NCBI RefSeq assembly: GCF_000311785.1
Contig: NZ_HE978541.1
Span: forward strand, 111,895 to 175,894
Source of the DNA: Brevibacillus massiliensis
GTDB taxonomy: Bacteria; Bacillota; Bacilli; Brevibacillales; Brevibacillaceae
DNA: 64,000 nt
Direction of reading: 5' to 3'
Below the pieces are notes generated by a model. That model was given only the letters and a program-made list of their open reading frames with translations. It did not search any database and was not told the DNA's origin. Shown here one piece after another: positions 2,307 to 35,817 of the stretch. Positions within the stretch are counted from its first letter, which is position 1. Each line of letters begins with the position of its first letter. Position numbers and translations under genes: made by a program.

Positions 2307-3107
2307 ATGTCTTCAACTGTCGTCCATGAGCAAAAACTGTTAACCTTAAAAAAAGAAAACGGTATCGCAGAAATTCATTTGCACGTAAACAAAACCAACT
2401 CTTATAACCTCGACTTCTACCGGGAGTTGAATGCAGCGATTGACGATATTCGCTTTGACAACGACATCAAGGTAGCCATTCTGATGAGCGATATGCCCAA
2501 GTTCTTTTCCGCTGGAGCGGACATCAACTTCCTGAAAGCGGCTGAACCCCGTTTTAAAACGCAATTTTGCCTGTTCTGCAATGAAACGCTGGACAAGATG
2601 GCACGCTCTCCGCAAATTTTTATCGCCTGCCTGGAAGGGCATACGGTCGGGGGCGGATTGGAGATGGCCCTGGGCTGCGACCTGCGCTTTATGGGTGACG
2701 AAGCCGGAAAGATCGGACTGCCGGAAGTGTCGCTCGGCGTACTCGCCGGTACGGGCGGGACGCAGCGGCTGGCTCGTCTGATCGGCTATTCCCGCGCCCT
2801 GGACATGAACATCACCGGCAAGACGATCAGTCCGCAGGAAGCAAAAGAGATCGGCCTCGTAAACGATGTGTTCCCGCAAGCCGAGACGCGTGAAAAAGTG
2901 CTGGAATACGCAAGAAACATCGTAAACAGCGCCACCTACGCCGTCTCCAACATCAAGCTGTCGATCATGAACGGCAAAGAAATGCCGCTGAATGTAGCGA
3001 TTCGCTATGAAGGTGAACTGCAAAACCTGTTGTTCCGCTCCGAGGATGCAAAAGAAGGATTGAGCGCGTTTTTGGAAAAACGCCAGGCGAACTGGAAGGG
3101 GCTGTAA
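2307..3107 (+). CDS. Enoyl-CoA hydratase/isomerase family protein (ECH1)
   Basis: Crotonase-fold enzyme of 266 residues. Both catalytic glutamates of classical hydratases are present, in GGGLEMALGCD and in GLPEVSLG, and the oxyanion-hole stretch FFSAGADI is intact, so hydration of a trans-2-enoyl-CoA is likely. ATG 2307 is chosen because AAAGGAGG lies 8 bases upstream. The protein differs from ECH2 (33604-34380) at only about 8 of 253 aligned positions although the DNA differs at many third codon positions; only its first dozen residues are distinct. It is transcribed alone, with a terminator after it, next to the CoA ligase and under the same operator as the paa operon. A role in breakdown of ring-cleaved aromatic-CoA products is inferred. 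Confidence 0.88.
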   Translation: MSSTVVHEQKLLTLKKENGIAEIHLHVNKTNSYNLDFYRELNAAIDDIRFDNDIKVAILMSDMPKFFSAGADINFLKAAEPRFKTQFCLFCNETLDKMARSPQIFIACLEGHTVGGGLEMALGCDLRFMGDEAGKIGLPEVSLGVLAGTGGTQRLARLIGYSRALDMNITGKTISPQEAKEIGLVNDVFPQAETREKVLEYARNIVNSATYAVSNIKLSIMNGKEMPLNVAIRYEGELQNLLFRSEDAKEGLSAFLEKRQANWKGL

Positions 3108-3245: not shown

Positions 3246-3308
3246 TACGTGCCTTTTATTGATTGCAAGCAGGTCTTTTTATCCTGGCAGGAAGGAGATG
3301 AGGTAAAG

Positions 3309-4871
3309 ATGGAGATAAGAGGTTTAGGGGTTAGGTACAATGCAGCCACACGCTTTATAGACGAGAATGTAAACAACGGCATCGGAGACAAGGTGGCCAT
3401 CTACTATGAGGACCGGCAGATCACGTACAAACAACTGCAAAGCAGCGTAAATCAGGCAGGGAATGCGCTGAAAAAGCTCGGGCTGGAGATGGAGCATCGG
3501 ATTCTCTTGGTGTGTTACGACACTCCGGAATTTATCGCTTCTTTCTACGGGGCAGTGAAGATTGGCGCCGTGCCGATTCCGGTCAATACGATGATGCATC
3601 CTTCCGATTACGAATACTTTTTAAACAACAGCCGGGCCAAGGCGATGATCATCCACGCCGACATCTGGAGCAAAATTCGCCATCTGCAAAGCCGGTTTCT
3701 TTACCTGGAACATGTGATTGTGATCGGCGAGGCGGAAGGCGGCGAAGAACATGTGCACTCCTACGACGAGTTGATCGGCTGGGCATCGGCAGAGCTGGAG
3801 CCGGCGTCGACCAATTACGATGATGCCGCTTTCTGGCTGTACAGCTCCGGAAGCACGGGAAATCCCAAGGGCGTCATCCACCTGCAGCACGACATGCAAT
3901 TCGCCCTCGACACGTATGCCAAAAGAGTGCTGAAGATAACGGAGGCCGACATCACATTCTCCGCCTCCAAACTGTTTTTTGCCTATGGGCTCGGCAACGG
4001 CATGTACTTTCCTTTAGGGGTGGGCGCATCGACCGTTTTGATGCCGGATCGCCCGCTGCCCGAAAAGGTCTTCGAAACCATCGAGAAGTACAGGCCTACG
4101 ATCTTTTTCGGGGTGCCGACGCTTTACGGCTCGATGATCGGTCTCGTCGAACGCAGCGGAAAAACATACGACCTTTCCTCGATACGGGTCAGCGTATCGG
4201 CCGGAGAATCGCTGCCGGCCAAGTACGTTCGCAAGTGGAGGGAGCTGTTCGGTACGGATATCCTCGACGGGCTCGGATCAACGGAAGTGCTGCACATCTT
4301 CCTGTCCAATCAAATCGGCGATATTCGCGAAGGCAGCTCGGGCAAGCTCGTCCCCGGGTACGAGGCGAAGATCGTCAATGAAATGGGCGTGGCGCTCTCG
4401 GCGAACGAAACCGGCGATCTGCTGGTGAAGGGCGACAGTATTGCCCACGGCTACTGGAACCTCCATGAGGAAAACAAGCGAAAGTTCAGCGGAGAGTGGC
4501 TGCACACCGGCGACAAGTACTACGTCGACGAGGAAGGGTATTTCTGGTACTGCGGCCGGTCGGACGACATGATCAAGGTAGGGGGAATCTGGGTCTCGCC
4601 CATCGAGATTGAAAACGCTTTACTTCAACACGAGGCTGTCCTGGAGGTTGCCGTCGTCGGCGTGCAGCAGGAGGAAAACCTTACCCACCCGAAAGCGTTT
4701 GTCGTGTTGAAAAACGGCGTCACTCCGCTCGACAGCCTGAAAAAGGACATGCAGGATTACTTGAAACAAAGGCTGGCGCCGTACAAGTATCCGCGGTTGA
4801 TTGAATTCGTCGATGAGCTGCCAAAAACATCAACCGGTAAAATACAGCGGTTCAAACTGAGAATCAGTTAA
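3309..4871 (+). CDS. Benzoate-CoA ligase family acyl-CoA synthetase
   Basis: A 520-residue ANL-superfamily adenylating enzyme that would activate an aromatic carboxylate to its CoA thioester via an acyl-adenylate. The P-loop-like A3 motif YSSGSTGNPKGV is at about residues 177-188, the A5-type motif GLGSTEVLHIFLSN near 340, the hinge motif GRSDDMIKVGG near 420 and the catalytic lysine motif PKTSTGKIQR near 505. The GSTE-x-LH-x-FLSN stretch is typical of benzoate- and 4-hydroxybenzoate-CoA ligases rather than of PaaK phenylacetate ligases. ATG 3309 follows GGAAGGAGATGAGG; longer versions lack such a site. Its neighbours, a PaaX-type regulator and a BenE-type permease, support benzoate or a relative as substrate, but specificity cannot be read from sequence alone. 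Confidence 0.85.
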   Translation: MEIRGLGVRYNAATRFIDENVNNGIGDKVAIYYEDRQITYKQLQSSVNQAGNALKKLGLEMEHRILLVCYDTPEFIASFYGAVKIGAVPIPVNTMMHPSDYEYFLNNSRAKAMIIHADIWSKIRHLQSRFLYLEHVIVIGEAEGGEEHVHSYDELIGWASAELEPASTNYDDAAFWLYSSGSTGNPKGVIHLQHDMQFALDTYAKRVLKITEADITFSASKLFFAYGLGNGMYFPLGVGASTVLMPDRPLPEKVFETIEKYRPTIFFGVPTLYGSMIGLVERSGKTYDLSSIRVSVSAGESLPAKYVRKWRELFGTDILDGLGSTEVLHIFLSNQIGDIREGSSGKLVPGYEAKIVNEMGVALSANETGDLLVKGDSIAHGYWNLHEENKRKFSGEWLHTGDKYYVDEEGYFWYCGRSDDMIKVGGIWVSPIEIENALLQHEAVLEVAVVGVQQEENLTHPKAFVVLKNGVTPLDSLKKDMQDYLKQRLAPYKYPRLIEFVDELPKTSTGKIQRFKLRIS

Positions 4872-4968
4872 ATAGAGCTTCCGGACATTCTTGCCATTAA
4901 GAGGGAATTAGCATACTCTAGATATCAGTGATAGAAGAAACAAGTCTCATCTATAGAAGGTGATAGAA

Positions 4969-5850
4969 ATGAAACCAAGATCACTGATGATCACTCTCTA
5001 CGGGGATTTTATCCAGTACTATGGCGGAGAAATCTGGATCGGCAGCCTCATCCGGATCATGTCGGAATTCGGAATTTCTGAATCCTCTGTCAGGGGAGCG
5101 ACTCTCCGCATGGTTCAGCAAGATCTCCTGCAGGTAAGAAGAGTCGGAAACAAGAGCTATTACAGTTTGACCGAGAAAGGCAAAAGAAGAATCGAAGACG
5201 GCGTAAAAAGGGTGTACTCCATTCGCGATCACAAATGGGATGGTCTATGGCGGATTTTGACTTACTCCGTGCCGGAAGAGAAGCGGGAGCTGCGCAACCA
5301 GATTCGCAAGGAGCTGAACTGGACGGGATTCGGGCTTGTGTCCAACAGTGTCTGGGTCAGCCCGAATCCCTTGGAAGAGCAGATCATGGAGATGATCCGC
5401 ACCTATAATCTGGAAGATTATACCATGTTATTCAGTTCCAGCTCTGTCGTGTCCCATGACAATCAGTACATCATTGACAAGGGATGGAATTTGCAGGAAA
5501 TTGAGGCGGAATACAACGGTTTTATCAAGTCCTATCAAGCCAAATACGAGCATTTGAAAGAGCGCGTCTGGAATAATACGCTGACAGATGTGGAGTCTTT
5601 TTTGGAGCGCACCCATCTTGTCCACGAGTTCAGAAAGTTTCTGTTTAAGGACCCGGGATTTCCCAAGGACCTCCTGCCCGATCATTGGAGCGGAAGAAGC
5701 GCCAGAGATTTGTTTTGGAATATCCATCAATTGATCTCCGTGTCCGCCGTCCGGTTCTTCGAGTCCGTGTTTGAACACGCACCTGATCGGACTGTCCAGC
5801 CAAACCGCGACAAAGCGATCAATCCGTTTGCGGAGATATACGTTAGTTAA
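4969..5850 (+). CDS. paaX: PaaX-family transcriptional regulator
   Basis: A 293-residue regulator of the PaaX type: an N-terminal winged helix (MKPRSLMITLYGDF, then SEFGISESSVRGATLRMVQQ), the central domain DHKWDGLWRILTYSVPEEKR and a C-terminal helical domain. E. coli PaaX represses phenylacetate genes and is released by phenylacetyl-CoA; relatives respond to other aromatic CoA esters. ATG 4969 has AGAAGGTG 7 bases upstream; a GTG at 4960 overlaps that site. It sits 97 bp after the CoA ligase and 18 bp before the permease, so it probably shares a transcript with both. It is the only aromatic-pathway regulator in the window and thus a candidate for binding the 36-bp operators. Family confident, target inferred. 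Confidence 0.85.
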   Translation: MKPRSLMITLYGDFIQYYGGEIWIGSLIRIMSEFGISESSVRGATLRMVQQDLLQVRRVGNKSYYSLTEKGKRRIEDGVKRVYSIRDHKWDGLWRILTYSVPEEKRELRNQIRKELNWTGFGLVSNSVWVSPNPLEEQIMEMIRTYNLEDYTMLFSSSSVVSHDNQYIIDKGWNLQEIEAEYNGFIKSYQAKYEHLKERVWNNTLTDVESFLERTHLVHEFRKFLFKDPGFPKDLLPDHWSGRSARDLFWNIHQLISVSAVRFFESVFEHAPDRTVQPNRDKAINPFAEIYVS

Positions 5851-5868
5851 GGAGGGAACATACGACAC

Positions 5869-7149
5869 TTGACCTCGGGGAGATCAGCCTGGATGGGAAG
5901 CCTTCGCGACTTCCCCAAGTACTTGTCTGTTGCCAGCATATCCAACGGGATTATTGCCTGGCTTTTTGGGGTCACAGGACCTTTGCTGATCGTGCTGCAG
6001 TCAGCCGCCAAGGGGAATGTCACCTTGGATGTAACCATCTCCTGGATTTTTTCGATCTACGTCGTCGGCGGCATTTTGACGCTTGGAATGTCGCTGTACT
6101 ACCGCCAGCCAATCCCGGTCGCTTTTTCCATTCCCGGCGCTGTTTTGGTCGGGAGCTCGCTGATGCAGCATACGTTTGCCGAGGTGGTCGGAGCGTATTT
6201 CATCACGGGCGTCCTGGTCGTGATTCTCGGCGTTACCGGGATTGTCAAGCGAATCATGAAAATTCTGCCGATGCCGATCATGATGGGTATGGTCTCCGGG
6301 GTCCTGCTGCCCTTCGGAATTGATATCATCACTTCGACTGTAGAAGCGCCCTTGCTGAATGGCGCGGTATTGGCCGTTTACTTCCTGCTTGCTGGTTTTC
6401 CCCTGCTGGCGAAGCGATTTCCGCCGCTGCTCGCCGCACTGCTGGCCGCTTTTTTGCTGCTGTATCTGTCGGGAATGCTGCAGGCAAACGGCGCAGCGTT
6501 TGCGCTGGCGAGGCCCCAGGTGTTCCTGCCGTCCTTCGACCTCGGCGCGATCGGCGAGCTGGTGATTCCCTTGACGCTGACGGTCATTGCAATTCAAAAT
6601 GCGCAGGGAATCGGCCTGCTCGGCACAAGCGGCTACCTGCCGCCGGTCAATGCCATGACCAACTGGAGCGGCATCGGTTCGCTGATCAACAGCTTTTTCG
6701 GCGCCCACTCGGCATGCATCGCCGGACCGATGACGGCGATTATCAGCGGGAGTGATACCGGCCCGCGGGAAGGAAGGTATGTCGCGGCGGTCATTGTTGG
6801 AATCTTGTGGATTTTGTTTGGCGTGTTTGCCCCGATTGCCGCGATGATGACGCAGATCGTCCCAGCTCATCTGATCAAGCTGCTCGGCGGCTTGGCCATG
6901 GTTGGCGTGTTGGCAGGCTCGCTGCAGTCCAGTTTTTCATCGCGCTTCAAGCTTGGGGCGCTGTTCTCATTTATCATCACCGTCTCCGGCGTCTCCCTCT
7001 TTCACATCGGAGCGCCGTTTTGGGGATTGGTAGGCGGCACGTTGGCGTCACTCGTACTGGAAAGAGCAGACTTTTCACCTTCGGCCGGGAACCTGCAGGC
7101 CAAAGGTGTAACAAAAGGTGGTAATGAACGTGAAAGCGACTCGGCATGA
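5869..7149 (+). CDS. benE: BenE-family aromatic acid (benzoate) permease
   Basis: A 426-residue integral membrane protein with about 12 hydrophobic segments. The stretches FSIPGAVLVGSSL, GMVSGVLLPFGI, QNAQGIGLL, GYLPPVNAMTN and FGAHSACIAGPMTAI follow the BenE benzoate/H+ symporter pattern. It would bring benzoate or a related acid into the cell for the CoA ligase encoded upstream. The start is uncertain: AAGGAGGG at 5849-5856 is 12 bases before TTG 5869, and the next candidate ATG 5893 lacks a binding site. The gene overlaps the next one by 26 bases, which argues for coupled translation. Substrate assignment comes from family and context. Confidence 0.8.
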   Translation: MTSGRSAWMGSLRDFPKYLSVASISNGIIAWLFGVTGPLLIVLQSAAKGNVTLDVTISWIFSIYVVGGILTLGMSLYYRQPIPVAFSIPGAVLVGSSLMQHTFAEVVGAYFITGVLVVILGVTGIVKRIMKILPMPIMMGMVSGVLLPFGIDIITSTVEAPLLNGAVLAVYFLLAGFPLLAKRFPPLLAALLAAFLLLYLSGMLQANGAAFALARPQVFLPSFDLGAIGELVIPLTLTVIAIQNAQGIGLLGTSGYLPPVNAMTNWSGIGSLINSFFGAHSACIAGPMTAIISGSDTGPREGRYVAAVIVGILWILFGVFAPIAAMMTQIVPAHLIKLLGGLAMVGVLAGSLQSSFSSRFKLGALFSFIITVSGVSLFHIGAPFWGLVGGTLASLVLERADFSPSAGNLQAKGVTKGGNERESDSA

Positions 7150-9688: not shown

Positions 9689-10657
9689 ATGGAGATACAA
9701 CGCATGAGTGATACGCTGTTTCGGATTCCGATTCCCGTTCCTTTTCCGATGAAGTACGTCTATTGTTACTTGTTCCGGGGAGATCAGGGAAGCGTAGTGG
9801 TTGACGCAGGCTTTAACTATCCTGAAGCGCAGGAGGCGTGGAAGGCGGCATTTCGCCAATTGGACGTGCAGCCTCGCGATGTGGGCGCGATCTATCTGAC
9901 TCACTTTCACCCCGATCATCTCGGGTTGGCCGGCTGGATGCAGGAGTTGACCGGGGCGCCGGTGTATCTCAGCGACATCGATCGGGAGATGTCGCTTAGG
10001 ACCTGGGGGACGGACAGCAGCCAGTCAAGGCTGGTAGCACAGATGTGTGTCAAACACGGGGTGCCGTCCGACCTGGCGGAGAGAATCGCAGCAAGCATGG
10101 AAAAGCTGAGCCAGCATGTGCTGCCGCTCGCTCGGCTTCAAGCTGTCCCGATTGGGCAGGCGGATTTGGCGGGAGAAGTGTGGAAAATGATCCTCACTCC
10201 GGGGCACAGCGACGGGCACGTCTGTTTTTATCAACCGGAGCGCAAGTGGCTGCTGGCCGGGGATCATCTGCTTGACAAAATCACGCCCAACATCAGTCTG
10301 TGGCCGGGATGCAGTCCCAATCCGCTGCAGGATTACCTGGAATCGCTGCGCCAGCTCCGCTCGCTTGATGTCTCCCTGGCGCTGCCCGGACATGGAAAAG
10401 TCATCACTGACGTAAAGCAGCGCATCGAGGAGATCCTGCAGCATCACTCGGTACGCCTGGACAGGATGCTGCAGCTGGCAAAAGCGGGACGGACTGCCTA
10501 TCAGGTTGCCGAGGCGGTATTCAGCGAGAAGCAGCTGACGCCGCACCAGTGGAGGTTTGCGCTGGCCGAGACGCTAGCCCACCTGGAGTATCTGGCTTCC
10601 CGGGATGAGCTGGCAAAAGTGGAAGGGGAACAGACGCTATTTCAAGCTCGCGAGTGA
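9689..10657 (+). CDS. Metallo-beta-lactamase-fold hydrolase
   Basis: A 322-residue MBL-superfamily protein with the metal-binding motif THFHPDHLG, a later ligand region in TPGHSDGHVCFY, the bridging aspartate in LLAGDHLLD and the terminal histidine in LALPGHGKVI. The C-terminal 70 residues form a helical extension with LTPHQWRFALAETLAHLEYL, a winged-helix-like tail seen in LACTB2-type relatives that act as thioesterases or nucleases. AGGAGGGG precedes ATG 9689, 10 bases after the crotonase stop. In a pathway of CoA esters a thioesterase role is plausible but not demonstrated. Confidence 0.8.
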   Translation: MEIQRMSDTLFRIPIPVPFPMKYVYCYLFRGDQGSVVVDAGFNYPEAQEAWKAAFRQLDVQPRDVGAIYLTHFHPDHLGLAGWMQELTGAPVYLSDIDREMSLRTWGTDSSQSRLVAQMCVKHGVPSDLAERIAASMEKLSQHVLPLARLQAVPIGQADLAGEVWKMILTPGHSDGHVCFYQPERKWLLAGDHLLDKITPNISLWPGCSPNPLQDYLESLRQLRSLDVSLALPGHGKVITDVKQRIEEILQHHSVRLDRMLQLAKAGRTAYQVAEAVFSEKQLTPHQWRFALAETLAHLEYLASRDELAKVEGEQTLFQARE

Positions 10658-26780: not shown

Positions 26781-26843
26781 TTGACAGAAAACTTATAATA
26801 TTTTAGTATTACGTTAAATAGACGATAATAATAAAAACGTAAT
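26781..26843 (+). promoter_or_regulatory. paaA promoter with the 36-bp operator (best copy)
   Basis: TTGACA (26781-26786) and TAGTAT (26804-26809) at 17-bp spacing give a strong sigma-A promoter. The operator at 26808-26843 has perfect inverted 8-bp ends, ATTACGTT and AACGTAAT, 20 bp apart, plus the central ACGAT. It overlaps the -10 box and ends 12 bases before the paaA start codon. The same arrangement precedes ECH1 and ECH2. Confidence 0.72.
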
Positions 26844-26855
26844 GAGGTGGAGCGA

Positions 26856-27791
26856 ATGGAACAGGCAGCTTTGCTGAAGGAGAAGGTTCATTCAGGTTTT
26901 ATGGTCGAACGCATAGAGGACATGAACGATGAGTACCTGAAGGCGTTGAAGCAAACCTTGGTGATTGTCGGGGATACGGAATTGCTGAGCGTCCCGCCGC
27001 TCTTGACGGTCTATGACCAGGCGCCGACCTTGAACAGCAAGATTACGGCATTAGCCATTATGCAGGATGAGATCGGCCATGCCCATATTGCCTACCGATT
27101 GCTGAAGGACCTTGGCGAGGATGTCGACCAGCTTCTGTACGAACGTCCGGCCAACCGATGGAAAAATCCGTACGCCTTTGACTTTCCGCTGTCCAACTGG
27201 ATTGAACTGGGCGTCTTCAACGCATTTTTTGACCGCGCCGGCTACACGCTGCTCGGAGATGCCTTCGAACACACGTCTTACGGCCCGTGGAAGCGAGCGC
27301 TGGTCAAGGTGGATAAAGAGGAACTGTTTCACCTGCGCAACGGAGAGATCATCATGAAGGCGGCGATGGAAAATCCCGAGACGCGGGAGCAGGTGCAGCA
27401 GGCAGCCGACTGGATGTTCTTGATGGGATTGGAGTTTTTCGGCGTCGCTGACGAACTGAAAAGCCGCTCGGCGCAATTGGACTACAAATTAAAAGGCCGG
27501 ACCAACGACCAGCTTCGGCAAAAATGGCTGTCCACCTGTGTTCCGTTTTGCGAGTCGATCGGCGTAAAAGTACCGGCCCGATACGATGAGGAAGCACAGA
27601 AGTACGTCATCACGGTACCGTTCCCTTGCAAGTTTGACGTGGAAAACAAGCGCTGGCTCTTCGAACAGCCGGACACGTGGGACGGCGTCATCGCCCGCTT
27701 CAAGAAAAGAGGCCCGCTCAACGAAGAATTCGTTGCCCGCATTCAGCAGGGGGCCCACGAAATGGCCGATCTCCGAAAAGAGGTGGGATGA
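26856..27791 (+). CDS. paaA: Phenylacetyl-CoA epoxidase-like catalytic subunit PaaA
   Basis: A 311-residue di-iron oxygenase subunit. Phenylacetyl-CoA 1,2-epoxidase adds one oxygen atom to the aromatic ring of a CoA thioester. The ligand motifs are visible: a first glutamate in GDTELLS, ExxH in MQDEIGHAHIAY, and a second ExxH in VDKEELFHLRNGE. ATG 26856 follows GAGGTGG. It is the first of nine tightly packed genes. No PaaE-type reductase and no PaaK ligase are in the window, and the only CoA ligase is of the benzoate type, so the true aromatic-CoA substrate needs testing. The family call is firm. Confidence 0.9.
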   Translation: MEQAALLKEKVHSGFMVERIEDMNDEYLKALKQTLVIVGDTELLSVPPLLTVYDQAPTLNSKITALAIMQDEIGHAHIAYRLLKDLGEDVDQLLYERPANRWKNPYAFDFPLSNWIELGVFNAFFDRAGYTLLGDAFEHTSYGPWKRALVKVDKEELFHLRNGEIIMKAAMENPETREQVQQAADWMFLMGLEFFGVADELKSRSAQLDYKLKGRTNDQLRQKWLSTCVPFCESIGVKVPARYDEEAQKYVITVPFPCKFDVENKRWLFEQPDTWDGVIARFKKRGPLNEEFVARIQQGAHEMADLRKEVG

Positions 27792-28117
27792 TGGCTGAGG
27801 CGAAATTGGTGGAAAAACGCTGCTGGAAGGCCTTGAAGGAAGTGATGGACCCCGAGTTTCCCGTCAGTGTGGTCGACATGGGGTTGATCTACGGGATCGA
27901 GGAACAGGACGGAGTCGTCACGGTTACGATGACCTACACGGCCGTATCCTGTGCTTGCATGGAGTGGATCGAAGGAGATATCCGCAAGCGGCTGCTGCAG
28001 GAGGCGGGCGTGGAAGAGGTCGAGATCAACGTCGTCTGGGATCCGCCCTGGACGGTGGAGCGTCTCAGCCCGGAAGCCCGTGAAAAAATGAAGACCTGGG
28101 GGGTAAGCGCCCGATGA
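27791..28117 (+). CDS. paaD: PaaD N-terminal domain (MIP18/DUF59 family) as a separate protein
   Basis: A 108-residue protein of the DUF59/SufT family: EVMDPEFPVSVVDMGLIYGI, then VTMTYTAVSCACMEWIEGDI and VNVVWDPPW-like INVVWDPPWTVERL. In E. coli PaaD this domain is fused to a zinc ribbon and is needed for maturation of the PaaABC di-iron oxygenase. Here the protein stops after the first domain; the ribbon is encoded at 28984. The cysteines in SCACM are retained. ATG 27791 overlaps the paaA stop by one base (27788 is possible), with AGAGGTGG upstream. Confidence 0.85.
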   Translation: MAEAKLVEKRCWKALKEVMDPEFPVSVVDMGLIYGIEEQDGVVTVTMTYTAVSCACMEWIEGDIRKRLLQEAGVEEVEINVVWDPPWTVERLSPEAREKMKTWGVSAR

Positions 28118-28347
28118 ACAACAGAGTCAGCAGAAACGAGTACGACGTCTTTACGCGGATCAAACGCGGCGACAATCTCGTTCACATAGGAACAGTCGAA
28201 GCCGAGACCGATGATCTGGCCAAGGTGTACGCCACTTACATCTACGACGAGGAAGATTGGGTGGAGATGTGCGTGGTGCGCAGAGATCACATCGGATGGG
28301 TCAGACATCCGGAAGGGTTATTCAAGAAAGAGGAGGCGGGGGCATAA
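28114..28347 (+). CDS. paaB: PaaB subunit of the aromatic-CoA epoxidase
   Basis: A 77-residue protein with the PaaB pattern: EYDVFTRIKRGDNLVHIGTV, a middle helix ATYIYDEEDWVEMCVV and the end RDHIGWVRHPEGLF. PaaB bridges the PaaAC heterodimers and has no catalytic residues. Length is close to the usual 90 to 95. It overlaps both neighbours (ATGA with paaD, TAATG with paaC). Confidence 0.87.
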   Translation: MNNRVSRNEYDVFTRIKRGDNLVHIGTVEAETDDLAKVYATYIYDEEDWVEMCVVRRDHIGWVRHPEGLFKKEEAGA

Positions 28348-28994
28348 TGGCAGAGCAGACAGCAGGACTTACATCTTTGGTCAATTTGATCGAGAGAATT
28401 GCTGATAACAAGTACGTACTCGGAGATCGCTTGGTCGAGGTGGGGATTAGCGGCCCCAACCTGGAAGCGACGCTTTCCGCGATCGCCATGGCCCAGGGAG
28501 AATTAGGCCATGCCCGGCTCTTGTACAACTGGTCGTTTGACTTGAAGGGACTGAAGGGCAAGAAACCGGAGATCGCGAGCCAATCGGGAAAGGCGTTTCC
28601 CCAGGTTGTCGCGATACGGAATTGGATCGAGCTGATCGCCGCCCTCTACACGGTCAACGTCGCGCTTGAGCTGGTGCTGAAAGCGCTGCTGGAGGCCAAC
28701 CACGCAGATGTGGTGCACCGGATTCACAAGCTGCTCAAAGAACAGAAGGAACACATCATCTATTCCCGGGGCTGGGCCCAGCAGCTATTGGCGGACGGCG
28801 GAACCATCCCGGCAAGGTTTAACGAAAGCCTTGACAAGGTGCTTCCGCAAGCGGAGGCCTGGCTGCAAAGCGTGGAAGACTCGGCAGACCTCATCAGCAG
28901 CGGATATCTTCCAAGCGGGACGAACCTCGTCGCCTCGTTCCAAAAGCAAATCGCCGAATTGCGCAGCGCAAGGACGGCTGTCAATGCAGGCTGA
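28347..28994 (+). CDS. paaC: PaaC structural subunit of the aromatic-CoA epoxidase
   Basis: A 215-residue ferritin-like protein related to PaaA. E. coli PaaC binds PaaA without its own iron centre. Here one ExxH motif, AQGELGHARLLYN, is intact, while the second (KEQKEHIIYSRGW) is out of register, so a full di-iron site is unlikely. Length is somewhat below the usual 240 to 250. Start ATG 28347 overlaps the paaB stop by one base, and its end overlaps the zinc-ribbon gene by 11 bases. Confidence 0.87.
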   Translation: MAEQTAGLTSLVNLIERIADNKYVLGDRLVEVGISGPNLEATLSAIAMAQGELGHARLLYNWSFDLKGLKGKKPEIASQSGKAFPQVVAIRNWIELIAALYTVNVALELVLKALLEANHADVVHRIHKLLKEQKEHIIYSRGWAQQLLADGGTIPARFNESLDKVLPQAEAWLQSVEDSADLISSGYLPSGTNLVASFQKQIAELRSARTAVNAG

Positions 28995-29166
28995 CCGAGA
29001 TACTTCTGTCCACTGTCCCTTCTGTGACAAAACGGATGTCACGCTGATGTCCCCGTTTGGAACGGCGCAGTTGGTCCGCCAGTATTACTGCAACGTTTGC
29101 CGAAGCGTTTTTGAGTACATCAGGTGGCAGGATGAGGATACGGACAAACGCGAGGGATTCATATGA
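28984..29166 (+). CDS. PaaD C-terminal zinc-ribbon domain as a separate 60-residue protein
   Basis: A 60-residue protein with two CxxC pairs, HCPFCDKTD and YYCNVCRSVFEYIRW, around MSPFGTAQLVRQ. This is the C-terminal zinc ribbon of E. coli-type PaaD, normally fused to the DUF59 domain. Here the two parts are separated by paaB and paaC. It starts inside the end of paaC (11-base overlap) and ends in an ATGA overlap with paaH, so coupled translation makes it a genuine gene. It presumably works with the 108-residue PaaD domain in maturing the oxygenase. Confidence 0.82.
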   Translation: MQADRDTSVHCPFCDKTDVTLMSPFGTAQLVRQYYCNVCRSVFEYIRWQDEDTDKREGFI

Positions 29167-30020
29167 ACGCAAAGACAGTAGGTGTAGTCGGTTCCGGCAC
29201 GATGGGCTCGGGGATCGCGCAGGTCATCAGCCAAAGCGGCAGCAGCGTGCTTTTATACGACATCAATGAGACGGTGGTCAATCGTGCCATCGCCAAAATA
29301 AGCGGGCAGCTGGATCGCCTGCACGAGAAGGGGAAACTGTCCGAAGCCGACTGCCTTGCCGCGAAAGAGAGGATTCGCCCGGCGGTCAACCTGGTGGAAC
29401 TGCAGCATTGCGAGTTGGTGATTGAAGCAGCTCCGGAACGGCTTGAGATCAAACGCGATCTCTTTCGCCAGCTGGACGAATGCTGCCGGAGGGAGACGAT
29501 TCTCGCGACCAATACGTCCTCTTTCTCCGTGACGGAAATGGGCGGCTTCACATCGCGTGCGGAGCGCGTGGCCGGGCTGCACTTCTTTAATCCGGCGCCG
29601 CTGATGCCGCTCGTCGAGGTGATCAGGGGCATCAAGACGGCGGAAGAAACCGTCAGCTGGCTGTACCGGTTTGCCTGCGATCTCGGCAAGAGCCCGGTCA
29701 TCTGCGAAGACACTCCGGGGTTTATCGTCAACCGGGTGGCCCGCCCTTATTATAATGAAGCTTTGCGAATTCTGGGAGATCGCATAGCGACTGCGGAGCA
29801 GATCGACCGGATCATGAAAAAAGCCGGGGCTTTCCGCATGGGCCCGTTCGAGCTGCAGGATTTGATCGGCATTGACATCAACTTCTCCACGACGGAATCG
29901 GTCCACGCCGGATTTTTCGGAGACCCGCGGTTCCGACCGCATACCTATCAGCAGCGGATGATGCAGGCAGGAAAGCTGGGGAGAAAGGCGGGAGGAGGGT
30001 TTTACGACTATGACGAGTAG
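29163..30020 (+). CDS. paaH: 3-hydroxyacyl-CoA dehydrogenase
   Basis: A 285-residue NAD-dependent dehydrogenase. The Rossmann motif [14 protein letters not shown], the catalytic histidine in [16 protein letters not shown] and the C-terminal helical domain ([34 protein letters not shown]) are intact. In the paa pathway it oxidises 3-hydroxyadipyl-CoA to 3-oxoadipyl-CoA before thiolysis. ATG 29163 overlaps the zinc-ribbon stop by 4 bases and the next gene by 11. Confidence 0.92.
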
Positions 30021-30768
30021 AGTGCGCGTTGCGGTCGTGGGGAGCAGTTCACTTGCCGCTGCCCTGAGAGAATTATGTGCACAGGCAGATGCGGTTGAAT
30101 TGGTACCGCCAAGCGAAACGGGACATCCCAATCAGCTTGCTGCCGTGATCGAGGCGACCAATGCCGACCTCGCCGAAAAGCGGGCGAACCTGGCGGAAAT
30201 AGAGCGGCTTGCGGGAGCGGAGACGCTGATCTTGTCCTCGGTACTGGGTGTGACCGCGACGCAGTCAGCCTCTTGGCTGAAGCACCCGTCCAGGCTGGTT
30301 GGCTTCGCGGCATTTGCTCCGCTCAAAAAAACGGAATTGATCGAGCTTGCCCCGGCCCTACAGACAGACCCGATCTACCTCGAGCAGGCGCGAGCTGTGC
30401 TCGGCAGCATCGGAAAAGAGACGGAAACCGTGGAAGACGAGGTGGGGTTGGTCTTTCCGCGCATCCTCGCGCTGATCGTCAATGAAGCCGCTTTCACGCT
30501 GATGGAGCGAACCGCCTCGGCGGAAGATATCGACATGGCGATGCAAAAGGGAACCAATTATCCGCAGGGACCGCTGGCCTGGGCTGATGAAATCGGCTTG
30601 GACGATATCTATGCCGTCCTGTCCGGCCTGCATCGGGATCTGGGCGAAGACCGATACCGCCCTGCCCCGCTGGTGCGGAAACTGGTTCACGCCGGGTGGC
30701 TGGGCCAAAAGACGGGCAGAGGATTCTATCGCTATCAAAGACAGGAAAACAGGGAGCCGGTAGTATGA
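30010..30768 (+). CDS. 3-hydroxyacyl-CoA dehydrogenase paralogue lacking active-site residues
   Basis: A 252-residue protein with the overall PaaH layout but with key residues gone. The nucleotide-binding loop is [11 protein letters not shown] instead of GxGxMG, and the segment aligned with GLHFFNPAP reads [10 protein letters not shown], so the catalytic histidine and the following asparagine are missing. The C-terminal half is well kept ([19 protein letters not shown] and [13 protein letters not shown], with KTGRGFYRY at the end). It is coupled by overlap to both paaH and paaJ, so it is surely expressed. A structural or regulatory partner of PaaH, or a CoA-ester binding protein, is plausible; dehydrogenase activity is doubtful. 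Confidence 0.8.
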
Positions 30769-31976
30769 GAGAAGCGGTAATTGTTGATGCAGTACGCACT
30801 CCGATCGGGCGTTACAACGGTTCGCTCCAAGGTGTTCGCGCCGATGATCTGGCCGCCAAGGTGATTGCCGAGGTGGTCAGGCGCAATCAGCTTGATCCCG
30901 GCCTGATCGACGACGTCTACTTCGGATGTGCCAATCAGGGGGGAGAAGACAATCGCAACGTCGCGCGGATGGCCCTGCTCCTGGCAGGCGTTCCGGAGAC
31001 GGTCCCGGGTGTCACTGTAAACCGTCTGTGCGCCTCCGGACTGGAGGCGATCAACCAGGCGGCAGCCGCCATCCGGGCGGATATCGGCGACGTGTTCATC
31101 GCGGGCGGGACAGAGAGTATGACGAGAGCCCCGTACGTGATGATGAAACCGCAGTTTAGCGGCGAGCGGGGCAATCAGACCCTCTACGATACGACGCTGG
31201 GCTGGCGGCTGGTCAATCCCGAACTGGCCCGCATGTATCCGCCGATCAGCCTGGGCGAGACGGCGGAAAACGTGGCGGAGCGCTGCGGCATCTCCCGCCG
31301 GGAACAAGATGAGTTTGCCCTGGCCAGCCAGGAGAAAGCGGCAGCCGCCATCAGAGCGGGGCGGTTTCGGGATGAGATCGTACCGGTCGAGGTGCGCCAA
31401 GGCAAAAACGTGGTCCTGTTTGACACCGATGAACATCCCAGACCGGAGACGACGCTGGAAAAGCTGTCCAAGCTGCAGCCCGCTTTTAAAGCGAACGGCA
31501 CGGTTACAGCGGGCAATTCTTCCGGGATCAACGATGGCGCCAGCGCCGTACTCGTGATGGAGCGGGAGACGGCACTTAGGCTGGGCTATACGCCGATCGC
31601 CCGGATCGTCACCTGGGCAGTCGCCGGCGTCGATCCGGCCTACATGGGGATCGGACCGGTGCCCGCCGTCAGGAAAGCGCTGCAAAAAGCCGGACTTTCC
31701 GAGAACCAGCTCGATTTGATCGAAATCAATGAAGCGTTTGCCTCCCAAGCGGCAGCGTGCATCAAAGAGCTTGGGCTGCCGCTGGATAAGGTAAATGTGA
31801 ATGGCGGGGCGATCGCTTTGGGCCATCCGCTCGGATGCAGCGGCGCCCGGATCGTCACGACGATGGTGCACGAGATGAAACGAAGAGACTGCCGCTACAG
31901 TCTGGCGACGATGTGTGTCGGAGTCGGACAGGGAATTGCCACGATCATCGAAAAATGGCAAGCGGCTTGCCAATAA
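30765..31976 (+). CDS. paaJ: 3-oxoadipyl-CoA/acetyl-CoA thiolase
   Basis: A 403-residue thiolase. The acyl-binding cysteine lies in [14 protein letters not shown], the second active-site segment is [17 protein letters not shown] and the C-terminal CVGVGQG carries the proton-transfer cysteine. In aromatic pathways it splits 3-oxoadipyl-CoA to succinyl-CoA and acetyl-CoA. ATG 30765 overlaps the dehydrogenase paralogue stop by 4 bases. Length and motifs are standard for PaaJ/PcaF. Confidence 0.9.
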
Positions 31977-31998
31977 CCACCAATCGGGAGGTATGGAC

Positions 31999-33477
31999 GT
32001 GTTAAAAGATTACTATCAACTCTTCATCAACGGCAAATACGAAGACAGCAGCAGCGGTGAGTTTTTTGAAACGCACAACCCCGCGACGGGCGAAGTCCTG
32101 GCCCGGGTCGCAAAAGCCACCAAGGCAGATGTCGACAAGGCTGTCGCCGCTGCCAGAGAGGCATTCGAAAACGGCAAGTGGTCGAAGTACACGGCGGCAA
32201 GACGCGCTCGTGTATTGAACAAGATCGCCGACATCATGCGCAGCAAGCTGGCCGACCTGATCCGCCTGGAAGTGCTGAACAGCGGGAAGACGGTCGATGC
32301 CGCCAAGGGGCAAATCAACCAGGCGATCGAGGACTTTGAATTTTACGCTGCTGCCGCCTTGACCCTGCGCGGCGATACCAACCCGGTGCCGAACGGATTT
32401 TTCAACTACACCGTCAAAGAGCCGGTAGGCGTCTGCGGCCAGATCATCCCGTGGAACTACCCGCTGATGATGGCTGCCTGGAAGGTAGCGCCCGCACTGG
32501 CGGCCGGCTGCACGATCGTCTTGAAACCGGCCAGCCTGACCCCGATCACGGCGTACGTGTTAGCCGATATTTGCCATGAAGCCGGCGTGCCGGAAGGCGT
32601 GATCAACGTGATCACCGGCAGCGGTTCCGAGATCGGCCCTTATATGACAGAACATCCCGGCATCGACAAAATCGCCTTTACCGGGGAGACGGAGACCGGG
32701 AAGGATATCATGTCCCGCGCTTCTGCCACGTTGAAACGGGTTACGCTGGAATTGGGCGGCAAATCGCCGAGCATCGTCTTTGACGACTGCGACCTTGAAG
32801 GCGCCGTTGACGGCTCTTTGTACGGCATTTTCTACAACACCGGACAATCCTGCGAAGCCCGCTCCCGCTTGTTTGTCCATGAGAAGATCTACGACCAGTT
32901 TATGGAAAAATTTGTAGAAAAGGCGAAGCGGCTGCGCGTAGGCGACCCGTTTGCCGAAGGCACACACATGGGAGCGGTGATTTCCGCCGGTCACGAACAG
33001 GTGATAGACAGTTACGTAAAACTGGCCGTAGAGGAAGGGGCAGAGGTGCTCTACGGAGGGAAGCGGCCGGAAGGGCCCGAGTTTGAAAAGGGGCATTGGT
33101 ACATGCCGACGATCATCGGCAACGTCACCAATAATATGCGGGTAGCGCAGGAAGAGATTTTCGGGCCGGTGGTAGTCGTGATCAAATTCAGTGACGAAAA
33201 AGATGTCATTCGCCAGGCGAACGATTCGATTTTCGGATTGGGGTCCGCTGTTTGGACCAAGGACCACGGCAAGGCACACCGCGTCGCCGCCGCGATTCGC
33301 GCCGGAATCGTCATGGTCAATTCTCCGATCTCGGCATTTCCGGGAACGCCGTTCGGCGGATACAAGCAGTCAGGCTTTGGACGCGAACTCTGTCTCGAGA
33401 CGCTAAACCTCTACACCGAGACGAAGAGCGTCATCTCCTATACGGGCAGCCGTCCGCTCAACCTGTTCGGCCTGTAA
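31999..33477 (+). CDS. Aldehyde dehydrogenase
   Basis: A 492-residue NAD(P)-dependent aldehyde dehydrogenase. The glutamate motif LELGGKSP, the nucleophilic cysteine in TGQSCEARSR and the C-terminal PFGGYKQSGFGRE are present. GTG 31999 is the likely start because GGGAGG is 7 bases before it; ATG 31993 would sit one base after that box. In this operon it probably oxidises the semialdehyde formed on ring opening, the job done by the PaaZ dehydrogenase domain. There is no fused MaoC hydratase domain, so the ring-opening step must be provided by another protein. Confidence 0.88.
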   Translation: MLKDYYQLFINGKYEDSSSGEFFETHNPATGEVLARVAKATKADVDKAVAAAREAFENGKWSKYTAARRARVLNKIADIMRSKLADLIRLEVLNSGKTVDAAKGQINQAIEDFEFYAAAALTLRGDTNPVPNGFFNYTVKEPVGVCGQIIPWNYPLMMAAWKVAPALAAGCTIVLKPASLTPITAYVLADICHEAGVPEGVINVITGSGSEIGPYMTEHPGIDKIAFTGETETGKDIMSRASATLKRVTLELGGKSPSIVFDDCDLEGAVDGSLYGIFYNTGQSCEARSRLFVHEKIYDQFMEKFVEKAKRLRVGDPFAEGTHMGAVISAGHEQVIDSYVKLAVEEGAEVLYGGKRPEGPEFEKGHWYMPTIIGNVTNNMRVAQEEIFGPVVVVIKFSDEKDVIRQANDSIFGLGSAVWTKDHGKAHRVAAAIRAGIVMVNSPISAFPGTPFGGYKQSGFGRELCLETLNLYTETKSVISYTGSRPLNLFGL

Positions 33478-33603: not shown

Positions 33604-34380
33604 ATGTCACTTCTTACTTTGAAAAAAGAAAACGGGATTGCCGAAATTCACCTGCACGTCAACAAGACCAACTCGTACAACCTGGACTTCTACAAGGAAT
33701 TGAATGCCGCGATCGACGATATCCGCTTTGACAACGACATGAAAGTGGCGATCCTGATGAGCGATATGCCGAAGTTTTTCTCTGCAGGAGCCGACATCAA
33801 CTTCCTCAAAGCAGCCGAACCGCGTTTCAAGACGCAATTCTGCCTGTTCTGCAACGAGACATTGGATAAAATGGCCCGCTCCCCGCAAATTTTCATCGCC
33901 TGCCTGGAAGGCCATACCGTCGGCGGCGGACTGGAGATGGCACTGGGCTGCGACCTGCGTTTCATGGGTGACGACTCCGGCAAAATCGGTCTTCCGGAAG
34001 TGTCGCTCGGCGTGCTCGCCGGTACGGGCGGCACCCAGCGGCTGGCTCGCCTGATCGGGTATTCCCGGGCGCTCGACATGAACATTACCGGCAAGACGAT
34101 CAGCCCGCAGGAAGCAAAAGAAATCGGTCTGGTAAATGACGTGTTCCCGCAGGCCGAAACCCGTGAAAGAGTGCTGGAATACGCGAGAAATATCGTGAAT
34201 AGCGCAACGTACGCCGTCTCCAACATCAAGCTGTCCATCATGAACGGCAAAGAGATGCCGCTCAACGTCGCGATCCGCTACGAAGGCGAGCTGCAAAACC
34301 TGTTGTTCCGCTCCGAGGACGCGAAAGAGGGCTTGAGCGCTTTCCTGGAAAAACGCGCGGCGGATTGGAAAGGCGTGTAA
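33604..34380 (+). CDS. Enoyl-CoA hydratase/isomerase family protein (ECH2)
   Basis: A 258-residue crotonase with both glutamates (GGGLEMALGCD, GLPEVSLG) and FFSAGADI intact. It is the near-twin of ECH1, differing at about 8 of 253 aligned residues, while third codon positions have drifted widely. ATG 33604 follows AGAGGAGG. It is bounded by its own promoter-operator and terminator, unlike the packed genes before it. It may hydrate the dehydroadipyl-CoA intermediate or isomerise the epoxide as PaaG does; sequence does not settle which. Confidence 0.88.
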   Translation: MSLLTLKKENGIAEIHLHVNKTNSYNLDFYKELNAAIDDIRFDNDMKVAILMSDMPKFFSAGADINFLKAAEPRFKTQFCLFCNETLDKMARSPQIFIACLEGHTVGGGLEMALGCDLRFMGDDSGKIGLPEVSLGVLAGTGGTQRLARLIGYSRALDMNITGKTISPQEAKEIGLVNDVFPQAETRERVLEYARNIVNSATYAVSNIKLSIMNGKEMPLNVAIRYEGELQNLLFRSEDAKEGLSAFLEKRAADWKGV

Positions 34381-34498: not shown

Positions 34499-35035
34499 GT
34501 GATCCTTGAGTACAACGGAAAGAAACCGAAGATTGCCAAAAGCGCTTTTATTGCCCCCAGCGCTTCCATCATCGGCGATGTCACGATCGGGGAGGGTGCG
34601 AGCATCTGGTTTGGGGCCGTGCTGCGCGGCGACTGCGGTCCGATCGTGGTCGGAGCCAGAACCAGTGTCCAGGACAACTGCGTGATCCATATGACGGACG
34701 GCGGCACCTATATCGCGGAAGATGTCACAGTCGGTCATGGAGCCGTCCTGCACAACTGCCGGATCGGGCGAAGCTCTGTCATCGGCATGAATGCGGTCGT
34801 GCTGGACAACACGGAAATCGGCGAAGAATCCGTGGTCGCGGCAGGCAGCATCGTCACGGCCAATCAAACATTCCCGCCGCGAATCCTGCTTGCCGGCAAT
34901 CCCGCCGTGAAGAAAAAGGAGATCGAGGGCAATTCGCTTTGGTGGGTGAAGGAGAGCTCCAAGTCGTACCAGGAGTTGAAGGAACAGTACATCCGCCAAG
35001 GCTATGACAGCAAACCGGAGGAGGAGAGCAGATGA
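34499..35035 (+). CDS. paaY: Gamma-carbonic-anhydrase-like hexapeptide protein, PaaY type
   Basis: A 178-residue left-handed beta-helix trimer protein. Hexapeptide repeats run through the middle (APSASIIGDVTIGEGASIW, ARTSVQDNCVIHM, VGHGAVLHNCRIG), with the zinc-ligand histidines in NCVIHM and VGHGAVLHNC. PaaY in Pseudomonas is a thioesterase that removes dead-end CoA esters formed by the epoxidase; other relatives are carbonic anhydrases. I favour GTG 34499, 8 bases after GAAGGAG, over GTG 34490 which overlaps that box. It overlaps the next crotonase gene by 4 bases. Confidence 0.83.
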   Translation: MILEYNGKKPKIAKSAFIAPSASIIGDVTIGEGASIWFGAVLRGDCGPIVVGARTSVQDNCVIHMTDGGTYIAEDVTVGHGAVLHNCRIGRSSVIGMNAVVLDNTEIGEESVVAAGSIVTANQTFPPRILLAGNPAVKKKEIEGNSLWWVKESSKSYQELKEQYIRQGYDSKPEEESR

Positions 35036-35817
35036 CACAGCAGCCAGTCTTGTTTGAGCGAAGCGGACACATCGGGTATGTCAGGCTAAATCGTCCCGAC
35101 GAGTTGAATGCGCTGGATTACGCTACGTTGTCGCGACTCGGCGAGATCATCGACGAGGTGCAGCAAAATCCCAAAGAGATCAGGGCGGTCATCGTCACGG
35201 CGGAAGGGCGAGCTTTTTGTGCCGGGGCTGATCTGAAAGAACGCAGAACGTTGAACGAACAGCAGGTGCGCCGCAATGTCAAGAAGATCAGGGATGTCTT
35301 CACCGCGCTGGAGAGATTGCCACAGCCGACGATTGCCGCGATTAACGGTTATGCCTTCGGCGGCGGGTTTGAACTGGCACTTGCCTGTGACTTCAGATAT
35401 GCCGTCAGGGAAGCCAAACTGGGGCTGACAGAGGTAAGTCTGGGGATCATCCCCGGAGCGGGCGGAACCCAACGCTTGCCAAGGCTGATCGGCCCGCAAA
35501 AAGCGAAAGAATTGATTTTTACCGCCCGCAGGATCGACGCCCAAACCGCTCTCGACTGGGGAGTGCTTGGCGGGATCGCGGAAGACCGCAGGGAACTGCA
35601 CAGCCTGTGCGCCAACCTCGCAGAAGAGATCCTGGCAAATGCGCCTTTGGCTGTCTACCAGGCCAAGTACGCGATTGACCGCGGGGCAGGCGTCGACCTG
35701 CAGACGGGGATGGACATCGAGTCAAAGGCATACGAGGTCATCATTCCCACCAGGGATCGGATCGAAGCCCTGGAGGCTTTTCGGGAAAAGAGAAAACCGG
35801 AATTTCGCGGCGAGTAA
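35032..35817 (+). CDS. paaF: Enoyl-CoA hydratase (ECH3)
   Basis: A 261-residue crotonase with glutamates in GGGFELALACDF and GLTEVSLGIIPGAGGTQ and the oxyanion loop AFCAGADLKER. Sequence is clearly distinct from ECH1/ECH2 and closer to short-chain or methylglutaconyl-type hydratases. In the paa pathway PaaF hydrates 2,3-dehydroadipyl-CoA. It is coupled to paaY by an ATGA overlap. The symbol is a pathway-based suggestion. Confidence 0.8.
   Translation: MTQQPVLFERSGHIGYVRLNRPDELNALDYATLSRLGEIIDEVQQNPKEIRAVIVTAEGRAFCAGADLKERRTLNEQQVRRNVKKIRDVFTALERLPQPTIAAINGYAFGGGFELALACDFRYAVREAKLGLTEVSLGIIPGAGGTQRLPRLIGPQKAKELIFTARRIDAQTALDWGVLGGIAEDRRELHSLCANLAEEILANAPLAVYQAKYAIDRGAGVDLQTGMDIESKAYEVIIPTRDRIEALEAFREKRKPEFRGE

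What the first reader, a model, noticed from the sequence alone, without database searches (positions are those of the whole stretch)
27791..29166. PaaD split into two non-adjacent genes
The DUF59 domain (27791-28117) and the zinc-ribbon domain (28984-29166) of PaaD, one polypeptide in E. coli, are separate genes with paaB and paaC between. Start and stop overlaps on every junction argue against misannotation. The zinc-ribbon protein of 60 residues is easily missed by gene callers. It offers a natural dissection of the maturation factor.
Basis: partly seen in the sequence, partly recalled or inferred. Interest (0 to 1): 0.6.

Follow-up and report, generated by a model that had tools for sequence, protein, structure and literature searches.

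The report
Split PaaD in a benzoate cluster
The two halves of the E. coli protein PaaD really are separate genes here, but they serve a second, sister enzyme to the phenylacetate epoxidase that sits with benzoate genes, and the two-gene form looks like the older one, with E. coli's fused protein a later merger.

Summary
A 108-aa DUF59 gene (27791-28117) and a 60-aa PaaD-type zinc-ribbon gene (28984-29166) are separate, with paaB-like and paaC-like genes between them, and every junction overlaps. The split pair is not a broken copy of that. It belongs to a distinct sister clade of PaaABC-like diiron enzymes. All 54 genomes examined with this clade in Bacillota and Chloroflexota keep a zinc ribbon that is not fused to DUF59, and so do the Thermus, haloarchaeal and Agrobacterium plasmid copies examined. 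The clade keeps all six iron ligands but has lost the PaaA 'lysine bridge' (59 of 59). It tracks benzoate-CoA ligase almost perfectly (13 of 13 genomes with it, against 1 of 385 without), and no BoxB was found in 398 Bacilli. Best reading: a PaaABC-like benzoyl-CoA (or close aryl-CoA) epoxidase with a two-gene maturation pair. On the PaaA tree the split state looks ancestral and fused PaaD derived. A split PaaD is already named in haloarchaea by NCBIfam (PaaD + PaaE). Substrate and roles of the two small proteins are inferred, not shown.

The parts
26856..27791 (+). PaaA-like catalytic subunit (311 aa), six Fe ligands kept, lysine bridge (E. coli E49/K68) absent
   Evidence: PF05138 203.5 bits; TIGR02156 135 bits, cut-off 280; residues; fold Z 32 to PaaA, 20 to BoxB
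27791..28117 (+). DUF59 protein (108 aa), counterpart of the N-terminal domain of PaaD
   Evidence: PF01883 60.7 bits; best NCBIfam NF041868 PaaD haloarchaeal 100.3, cut-off 180
28114..28347 (+). short PaaB-like bridging subunit (77 aa)
   Evidence: PF06243 E 0.0018, below cut-off; TIGR02157 25.5, cut-off 85.45; operon position conserved
28347..28994 (+). PaaC-like structural subunit (215 aa)
   Evidence: PF05138 68.1 bits; matches E. coli PaaC structures E 3e-6
28984..29166 (+). free-standing zinc ribbon (60 aa; Cys 11, 14, 36, 39), counterpart of the C-terminal domain of PaaD
   Evidence: PF23451 46.6 bits; four Cys invariant; dN/dS 0.0-0.23 where estimable; model core pLDDT about 80-94
29163..30020 (+). 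3-hydroxyacyl-CoA dehydrogenase
   Evidence: PF02737/PF00725
30010..30768 (+). second 3-hydroxyacyl-CoA dehydrogenase-like protein
30765..31976 (+). thiolase, nearest to 3-oxoadipyl-CoA thiolase (559.5 bits, cut-off 605)
31993..33477 (+). aldehyde dehydrogenase (494 aa), matched along its length by aldehyde dehydrogenase models only
33604..34380 (+). crotonase (enoyl-CoA hydratase), twin of 2310-3107
35032..35817 (+). enoyl-CoA hydratase
3249..4871 (+). benzoate-CoA ligase family protein
   Evidence: TIGR02262 639.9 bits, cut-off 375.25
4960..5850 (+). PaaX-type repressor
   Evidence: TIGR02277 267.4, cut-off 264.55
5869..7149 (+). BenE-type benzoate/H+ symporter
   Evidence: TIGR00843 204.5, cut-off 203.4
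26781..26809 (+). sigma-70-like promoter ahead of paaA (TTGACA-17-TAGTAT)
   Evidence: 3 promoter-like sites found, 1.8 expected: weak

Best explanation
The window holds a second, paralogous PaaABC-like diiron monooxygenase operon ('W-type'), sister to true phenylacetyl-CoA epoxidase, in a benzoate gene set. Most likely benzoate is imported (BenE or the ABC transporter), made into benzoyl-CoA (ligase), epoxidised on the ring by the PaaA-like diiron subunit held by PaaC-like and PaaB-like subunits, then opened and oxidised (crotonases, aldehyde dehydrogenase) and taken by 3-hydroxyacyl-CoA dehydrogenase and thiolase to acetyl-CoA and succinyl-CoA. The DUF59 protein and the 60-aa zinc-ribbon protein act together as the counterpart of PaaD: DUF59 delivers or inserts iron into the oxygenase and the zinc ribbon docks it on the target. 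Shown: gene structure, clade, conserved split state, iron ligands, link to the ligase. Inferred: substrate, maturation role, partnership of the two proteins. The two-gene state is probably ancestral; fused PaaD arose once, in bacterial paa clusters.
For: Two classes with a clean gap: in 398 Bacilli, 13 genomes have W-type PaaA at 63-100% identity (E <= 5e-134); the other 141 with a match have only matches at E >= 8e-35, no more than about 34% identical in the listed rows. Benzoate-CoA ligase over cut-off in 14 of 398: all 13 W-type genomes plus one (Fisher p 1.7e-23, kinship ignored); same contig within 10 kb in 10 of 13. BoxB: 0 of 398. Of 53 related loci, ligase in 45, PaaX in 43. Zinc ribbon found in 47 of 53 loci, none in one frame with DUF59; the other six genomes have it elsewhere. 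All six Fe ligands kept in 59 of 59. One relative (G175) has the W-type pair and no fused PaaD, so the pair stands alone there. Split/fused needs one change on the tree.
Against: No substrate or activity data. PaaA crystal structures also bind benzoyl-CoA (3pvr, 4ii4; titles), so binding alone would not prove use. No PaaE-type reductase was identified near the cluster (one weak hit in 60 stretches); BoxA and BoxC were not searched for. Formate dehydrogenase is near only in Haloterrigena; in the Bacilli loci there was one weak hit (28%, L043). Haloarchaeal ligases fall just under the benzoate-CoA ligase cut-off (370.7-374.9 against 375.25). G098 has the ligase without W-type PaaA. In the window the ligase is about 22 kb from paaA. 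The PaaC root is long-branched, so the direction of the split/fused change is moderately supported (W-type clade 87/68 to 96/89).
Confidence: 0.6

Rival explanations
1. The cluster is simply a divergent second phenylacetyl-CoA epoxidase; PaaD was split in this lineage and the benzoate-CoA ligase is an incidental neighbour.
For: PaaA fold Z 32; PaaX-type regulator over cut-off; F108, which orients the phenylacetyl ring in E. coli (PMC4498308), kept in 58 of 59.
Against: PaaA, PaaB, PaaC, DUF59 and zinc ribbon all fail the Paa equivalog cut-offs while the C6 operon passes all. The C6 operon already has PaaK and fused PaaD. No PaaK hit in the window. Ligase co-occurrence 13 of 13 against 1 of 385. 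Lysine bridge lost in 59 of 59.
Confidence: 0.15
2. The epoxidase acts on another aryl-CoA made by a benzoate-CoA-ligase-family enzyme (hydroxy-, amino- or methylbenzoyl-CoA), not benzoyl-CoA itself.
For: TIGR02262 is a subfamily model, not an equivalog; haloarchaeal clusters add UbiD decarboxylases and CoA-transferases; for the Agrobacterium W-type cluster the nearby ligase tested does not list TIGR02262 among its 25 best families.
Against: BenE symporter in the window. Aerobic benzoyl-CoA catabolism was reported for Bacillus stearothermophilus (Zaar et al. 2001, recalled; not held), and no BoxB was found in Bacilli.
Confidence: 0.2
3. The zinc ribbon is not a maturation partner of DUF59 but a structural or docking subunit of the oxygenase or of the downstream dehydrogenase.
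For: In 10 Bacilli loci and the Chloroflexi locus it lies upstream, away from DUF59, and in several loci it heads the dehydrogenase genes. In Domibacillus antri it is in one frame with the 3-hydroxyacyl-CoA dehydrogenase. Chains of the vanillic acid decarboxylase VdcCD are among its weak fold matches.
Against: The same two domains are joined in bacterial PaaD and adjacent in haloarchaeal PaaD/PaaE, which links their functions.
Confidence: 0.25
4. Annotation or sequencing artefact (frameshift in a fused PaaD, or a spurious 60-aa ORF).
For: Short ORF; ORF lists alone prove nothing.
Against: paaB and paaC lie between the halves; W-type zinc ribbon found in all 53 related genomes (47 in the locus; 6 elsewhere in the genome); dN/dS 0.0-0.23 where estimable.
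Confidence: 0.01

Closest known systems
PaaABCD(E), 1,2-phenylacetyl-CoA epoxidase (E. coli; also C6 of this genome)
   Same: PaaA fold, six Fe ligands, PaaC-like partner, DUF59 plus zinc-ribbon accessory, PaaX-type regulator, beta-oxidation tail.
   Different: All equivalog scores fail; lysine bridge E49/K68 absent; gene order A-DUF59-B-C-ZnR; DUF59 and ribbon separate; fifth ribbon Cys absent (0 of 53 against 18 of 18); benzoate-CoA ligase instead of PaaK.
Haloarchaeal PaaD + PaaE (NCBIfam NF041868, NF041869)
   Same: DUF59 and a roughly 56-aa zinc ribbon as separate genes.
   Different: There the two are adjacent after paaC, belong to the canonical PaaA clade, and the ribbon has the fifth Cys; window proteins score below both cut-offs.
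BoxAB benzoyl-CoA 2,3-epoxidase
   Same: Expected reaction type and pathway logic (ligase, epoxidation, stand-alone aldehyde dehydrogenase as described for BoxD in PMC4498308).
   Different: BoxB is a single larger chain with no structural subunit (PMC4498308); no BoxB in the genome or in 398 Bacilli; fold Z 20 against 32 for PaaA.
SufT / DUF59 iron-sulfur maturation proteins
   Same: DUF59 domain with the conserved Cys (alignment; PMC4982691 passages).
   Different: TIGR02945 85 bits, cut-off 143.4; operon with an oxygenase, not suf genes. PMC4982691 lists a C-terminal 'PaaJ' fusion class, n = 75, which I take to be fused PaaD.

Membership tests
1,2-phenylacetyl-CoA epoxidase PaaABCD | NCBIfam equivalog cut-offs TIGR02156/57/58/59 | tested here: not met
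   135/280, 25.5/85.45, 52.8/133.35; TIGR02159 69.5 (DUF59) and 32.2 (ribbon) against 108.15; C6 operon passes all
1,2-phenylacetyl-CoA epoxidase PaaABCD | Six Fe ligands E42 E72 H75 D126 E155 H158 (named in PMC4498308) | tested here: met
   59 of 59 W-type
1,2-phenylacetyl-CoA epoxidase PaaABCD | Lysine bridge K68 with E49 (PMC4498308) | tested here: not met
   K68 and E49 in 0 of 59 W-type, 17 of 17 canonical plus E. coli
1,2-phenylacetyl-CoA epoxidase PaaABCD | Turns over phenylacetyl-CoA | not testable with these tools
   needs an enzyme assay
PaaD (fused) | DUF59 and zinc ribbon in one polypeptide | tested here: not met
   separate genes in the window and in all 47 loci where the ribbon lies in the locus
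PaaD (fused) | Both Pfam domains present (PF01883, PF23451) | tested here: met
Haloarchaeal PaaD/PaaE | Equivalog cut-offs NF041868 (180), NF041869 (100) | tested here: not met
   100.3 and 27.1 bits
Haloarchaeal PaaD/PaaE | Fifth Cys of the ribbon | tested here: not met
   0 of 53 W-type; 18 of 18 canonical incl. 5 haloarchaeal
BoxB benzoyl-CoA epoxidase | TIGR03225 cut-off 499.1 | tested here: not met
   window PaaA 17.8 bits; none in own genome or 398 Bacilli
Benzoyl-CoA epoxidase (as a function) | NADPH- and O2-dependent turnover of benzoyl-CoA | not testable with these tools
   only genomic association
SufT | TIGR02945 cut-off 143.4 | tested here: not met
   85 bits

The most novel reading that the evidence does not exclude
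A previously unassigned clade of PaaABC-like diiron oxygenases is the aerobic benzoyl-CoA epoxidase of Bacillota, Thermus and haloarchaea, evolutionarily separate from BoxAB, working without the PaaA lysine bridge and matured by the ancestral two-protein form of PaaD. E. coli PaaD is then a later fusion of two independent factors, and the free zinc ribbon has moved between operon positions, contigs and even into a dehydrogenase frame.
Probability: 0.5. Interest if true: 0.75.

Novelty: new variant of a known kind. Interest (0 to 1): 0.6.

Why it matters
It gives separate genes for the two halves of PaaD, a factor needed in vivo but not in vitro (PMC4498308, passages), so their roles can be tested one at a time. 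It offers a candidate gene set for aerobic benzoyl-CoA use in Bacilli, where no BoxB was found. It shows natural diiron oxygenases lacking the lysine bridge whose E49Q/K68Q mutant has been crystallised (4ii4, title). Current names ('Phenylacetic acid catabolic protein', 'PaaA') would mislabel such clusters as phenylacetate pathways.

Tried and rejected
Artefact or frameshift: rejected. Identity as the genome's only PaaD: rejected. BoxB as the epoxidase: rejected for this genome and 398 Bacilli. D126 replaced by Glu: suggested by the pairwise alignment, rejected by the multiple alignment (D in 59 of 59). DUF59 tree: its outgroup row was translated on the wrong strand, so the tree is not used; the alignments printed there are. 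L114 (RHA1 plasmid) has no DUF59 or ribbon hit in the stretch and a long branch; it was in the tree unscored and dropped from the tree. L109 (Rhodococcus, fused, PaaA fragment) was left out, then tested: it falls inside canonical, still one change. Formate dehydrogenase near the Bacilli loci as a sign of Box-type formate release (formate release recalled): one weak hit only. Zinc-ribbon fold search gave only generic ribbons, none at E <= 0.001. Zinc-ribbon sequence search of the PDB: nothing relevant. Missing DUF59 in L054: found on another contig of that genome, 58% identical. Literature: ten searches listed no paper whose title or abstract start assigns PaaABC-like genes to benzoyl-CoA, nor did the passages I read (one search had no match for its terms); the library holds CC-licensed PMC papers only.
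Full report
OBSERVATION. The 60-aa protein is a real gene: dN/dS was 0.0-0.23 in the 10 of 16 pairs where dS could be estimated; in the other six dS was saturated.

One exists: contig C6 holds PaaA, PaaB, PaaC, fused PaaD (TIGR02159 174.8 bits, cut-off 108.15) and PaaK, all over their NCBIfam cut-offs (loci). In contrast none of the window proteins passes a Paa cut-off: PaaA 135/280, PaaB 25.5/85.45, PaaC 52.8/133.35. So the window is not the paa operon. The fused copy does not explain the split pair away, because it belongs to another operon, and relative G175 has the split pair with no canonical PaaA, no fused ribbon and no fused PaaD.

A DISTINCT CLADE. With window PaaA as query, 154 of 398 Bacilli genomes matched. 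Thirteen are at 63-100% identity (E <= 5e-134); the other 141 have only matches at E >= 8e-35, no more than about 34% identical in the rows listed (the list was cut before its end), with nothing between. A scan of named genomes gave 53 loci, 52 Bacillota and one Chloroflexi MAG. Plasmid records add Thermus (54%), haloarchaea (46-50%) and Agrobacterium (38%). On a PaaA tree rooted with PaaC, these form one clade (90/82, 87/68, 96/89), sister to canonical PaaA.

SPLIT EVERYWHERE. In the 53 loci DUF59 was found in 52. The ribbon was found in 47: 36 directly after paaC and 11 upstream by 2-12 kb. None shared a frame with DUF59. The six loci without a ribbon have W-type PaaA less than 6 kb from a contig end, and all six genomes have a W-type ribbon elsewhere. 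The locus without DUF59 (L054) has it on another contig. With the window's own genome that makes 54. In Domibacillus antri the ribbon is in one 365-aa frame with the 3-hydroxyacyl-CoA dehydrogenase.

WHICH STATE IS OLDER. Scoring 37 rows (20 W-type split, 5 haloarchaeal canonical split, 12 bacterial canonical fused), the tree needs one change. The fused rows form one clade (99/97) and the haloarchaeal canonical rows branch before it. Three rows of that tree were not scored (L013, L052 canonical, L114). Adding a divergent fused Rhodococcus row keeps it at one. With the PaaC root this makes split ancestral and fused derived. The root is long-branched and only plasmid-borne archaeal rows were sampled, so I hold this at about 0.7. 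Haloarchaeal canonical D and E are adjacent, which would make a fusion easy; this is inference.

RESIDUES. All six iron ligands listed in PMC4498308 (passages) are kept in 59 of 59 W-type PaaA. The lysine-bridge residues K68 and E49 are kept in 17 of 17 canonical rows and in E. coli, and in 0 of 59 W-type. The PDB title of 4ii4 shows that an E49Q/K68Q double mutant of PaaA was crystallised with benzoyl-CoA. The four zinc cysteines are in 53 of 53 W-type and 18 of 18 canonical ribbons; a fifth cysteine is in 18 of 18 canonical, split or fused, and in 0 of 53 W-type. The model of window PaaA (pLDDT 90) matches PaaA at Z 32.0 (rmsd 2.3, 292 aligned) and BoxB at Z 20.4 (rmsd 2.6, 239 aligned).

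BENZOATE LINK. The window has a benzoate-CoA ligase family protein (639.9 bits, cut-off 375.25), a BenE symporter and PaaX. In the same 398 Bacilli the ligase family is over cut-off in 14: the 13 W-type genomes and G098. Fisher p is 1.7e-23, ignoring kinship; the 13 fall in nine family codes. Within f7, of the genomes listed with a match, four have W-type PaaA and the same four have the ligase over cut-off. In 10 of 13 the two genes are within 10 kb; in the window they are about 22 kb apart and in two genomes on different contigs. Of the 53 named loci, 45 hold the ligase; of the eight that do not, six are on stretches of 11.3 kb or less. BoxB was found in 0 of 398. In Calidifontibacillus L056 the W-type operon with the ligase and the canonical operon with PaaK and fused PaaD stand side by side. 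Haloarchaeal W-type clusters carry ligases whose best family is the same, just under the cut-off.

MECHANISM. Shown: anatomy, clade, iron ligands, ligase association. From known families: PaaABC epoxidise an aryl-CoA; DUF59 proteins act in iron-sulfur maturation (PMC4982691, passages); PaaD is needed in vivo but not in vitro, and a role in iron incorporation has been suggested (PMC4498308, passages). Inferred: DUF59 loads iron and the zinc ribbon docks or stabilises; the substrate is benzoyl-CoA. Open: the reductase and the ring-opening enzyme. Aerobic benzoyl-CoA use by Bacillus stearothermophilus (Zaar 2001) is recalled; that paper is not held.

PRIOR KNOWLEDGE. NCBIfam names split PaaD/PaaE in haloarchaea. 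The 2026 survey PMC13186573 (outline and passages) describes PaaD by the FeS_assembly_P domain alone in the passages I saw. No paper found ties W-type genes to benzoate (searches under Tried and rejected).

VERDICT. Observation confirmed; interpretation partly supported; new variant of a known kind; interest 0.6, mostly for the separate epoxidase clade and the likely direction of the fusion.

Noticed in passing
window 2310-3107 and 33604-34380: Twin crotonase genes 96% identical to each other against 90.6% to the nearest other locus. 27 of 45 loci with a copy have two, and in six (L015, L019, L020, L028, L030, L048) the pair is 99-100% identical while other species are at 90-96%: concerted evolution.
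   Followed up: partly
L136 (Domibacillus antri): The zinc ribbon is in one 365-aa frame with the 3-hydroxyacyl-CoA dehydrogenase: a fusion in a different direction.
   Followed up: no
L054 and its genome (Aliibacillus thermotolerans): W-type operon without DUF59 between paaA and paaB; the DUF59 gene sits on another contig, 58% identical.
   Followed up: yes
L098 23744-24885 and L102 16449-20366: Haloarchaeal W-type clusters lie near formate dehydrogenase (Haloterrigena), UbiD decarboxylases and an MBL-fold protein; an MBL-fold gene also lies at window 9689-10657 and in 36 of 53 loci.
   Followed up: partly
L100 9929-12444 (Agrobacterium plasmid): A deep W-type branch with a free ribbon not listed in the record's gene table, next to CoA-transferase and ABC transporter genes; substrate unknown.
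   Followed up: no
window 7121-8893: Adenine-deaminase-like amidohydrolase (250.8 bits, cut-off 472.5) recurring in 23 of 53 related loci beside the aromatic genes; role unclear.
   Followed up: no
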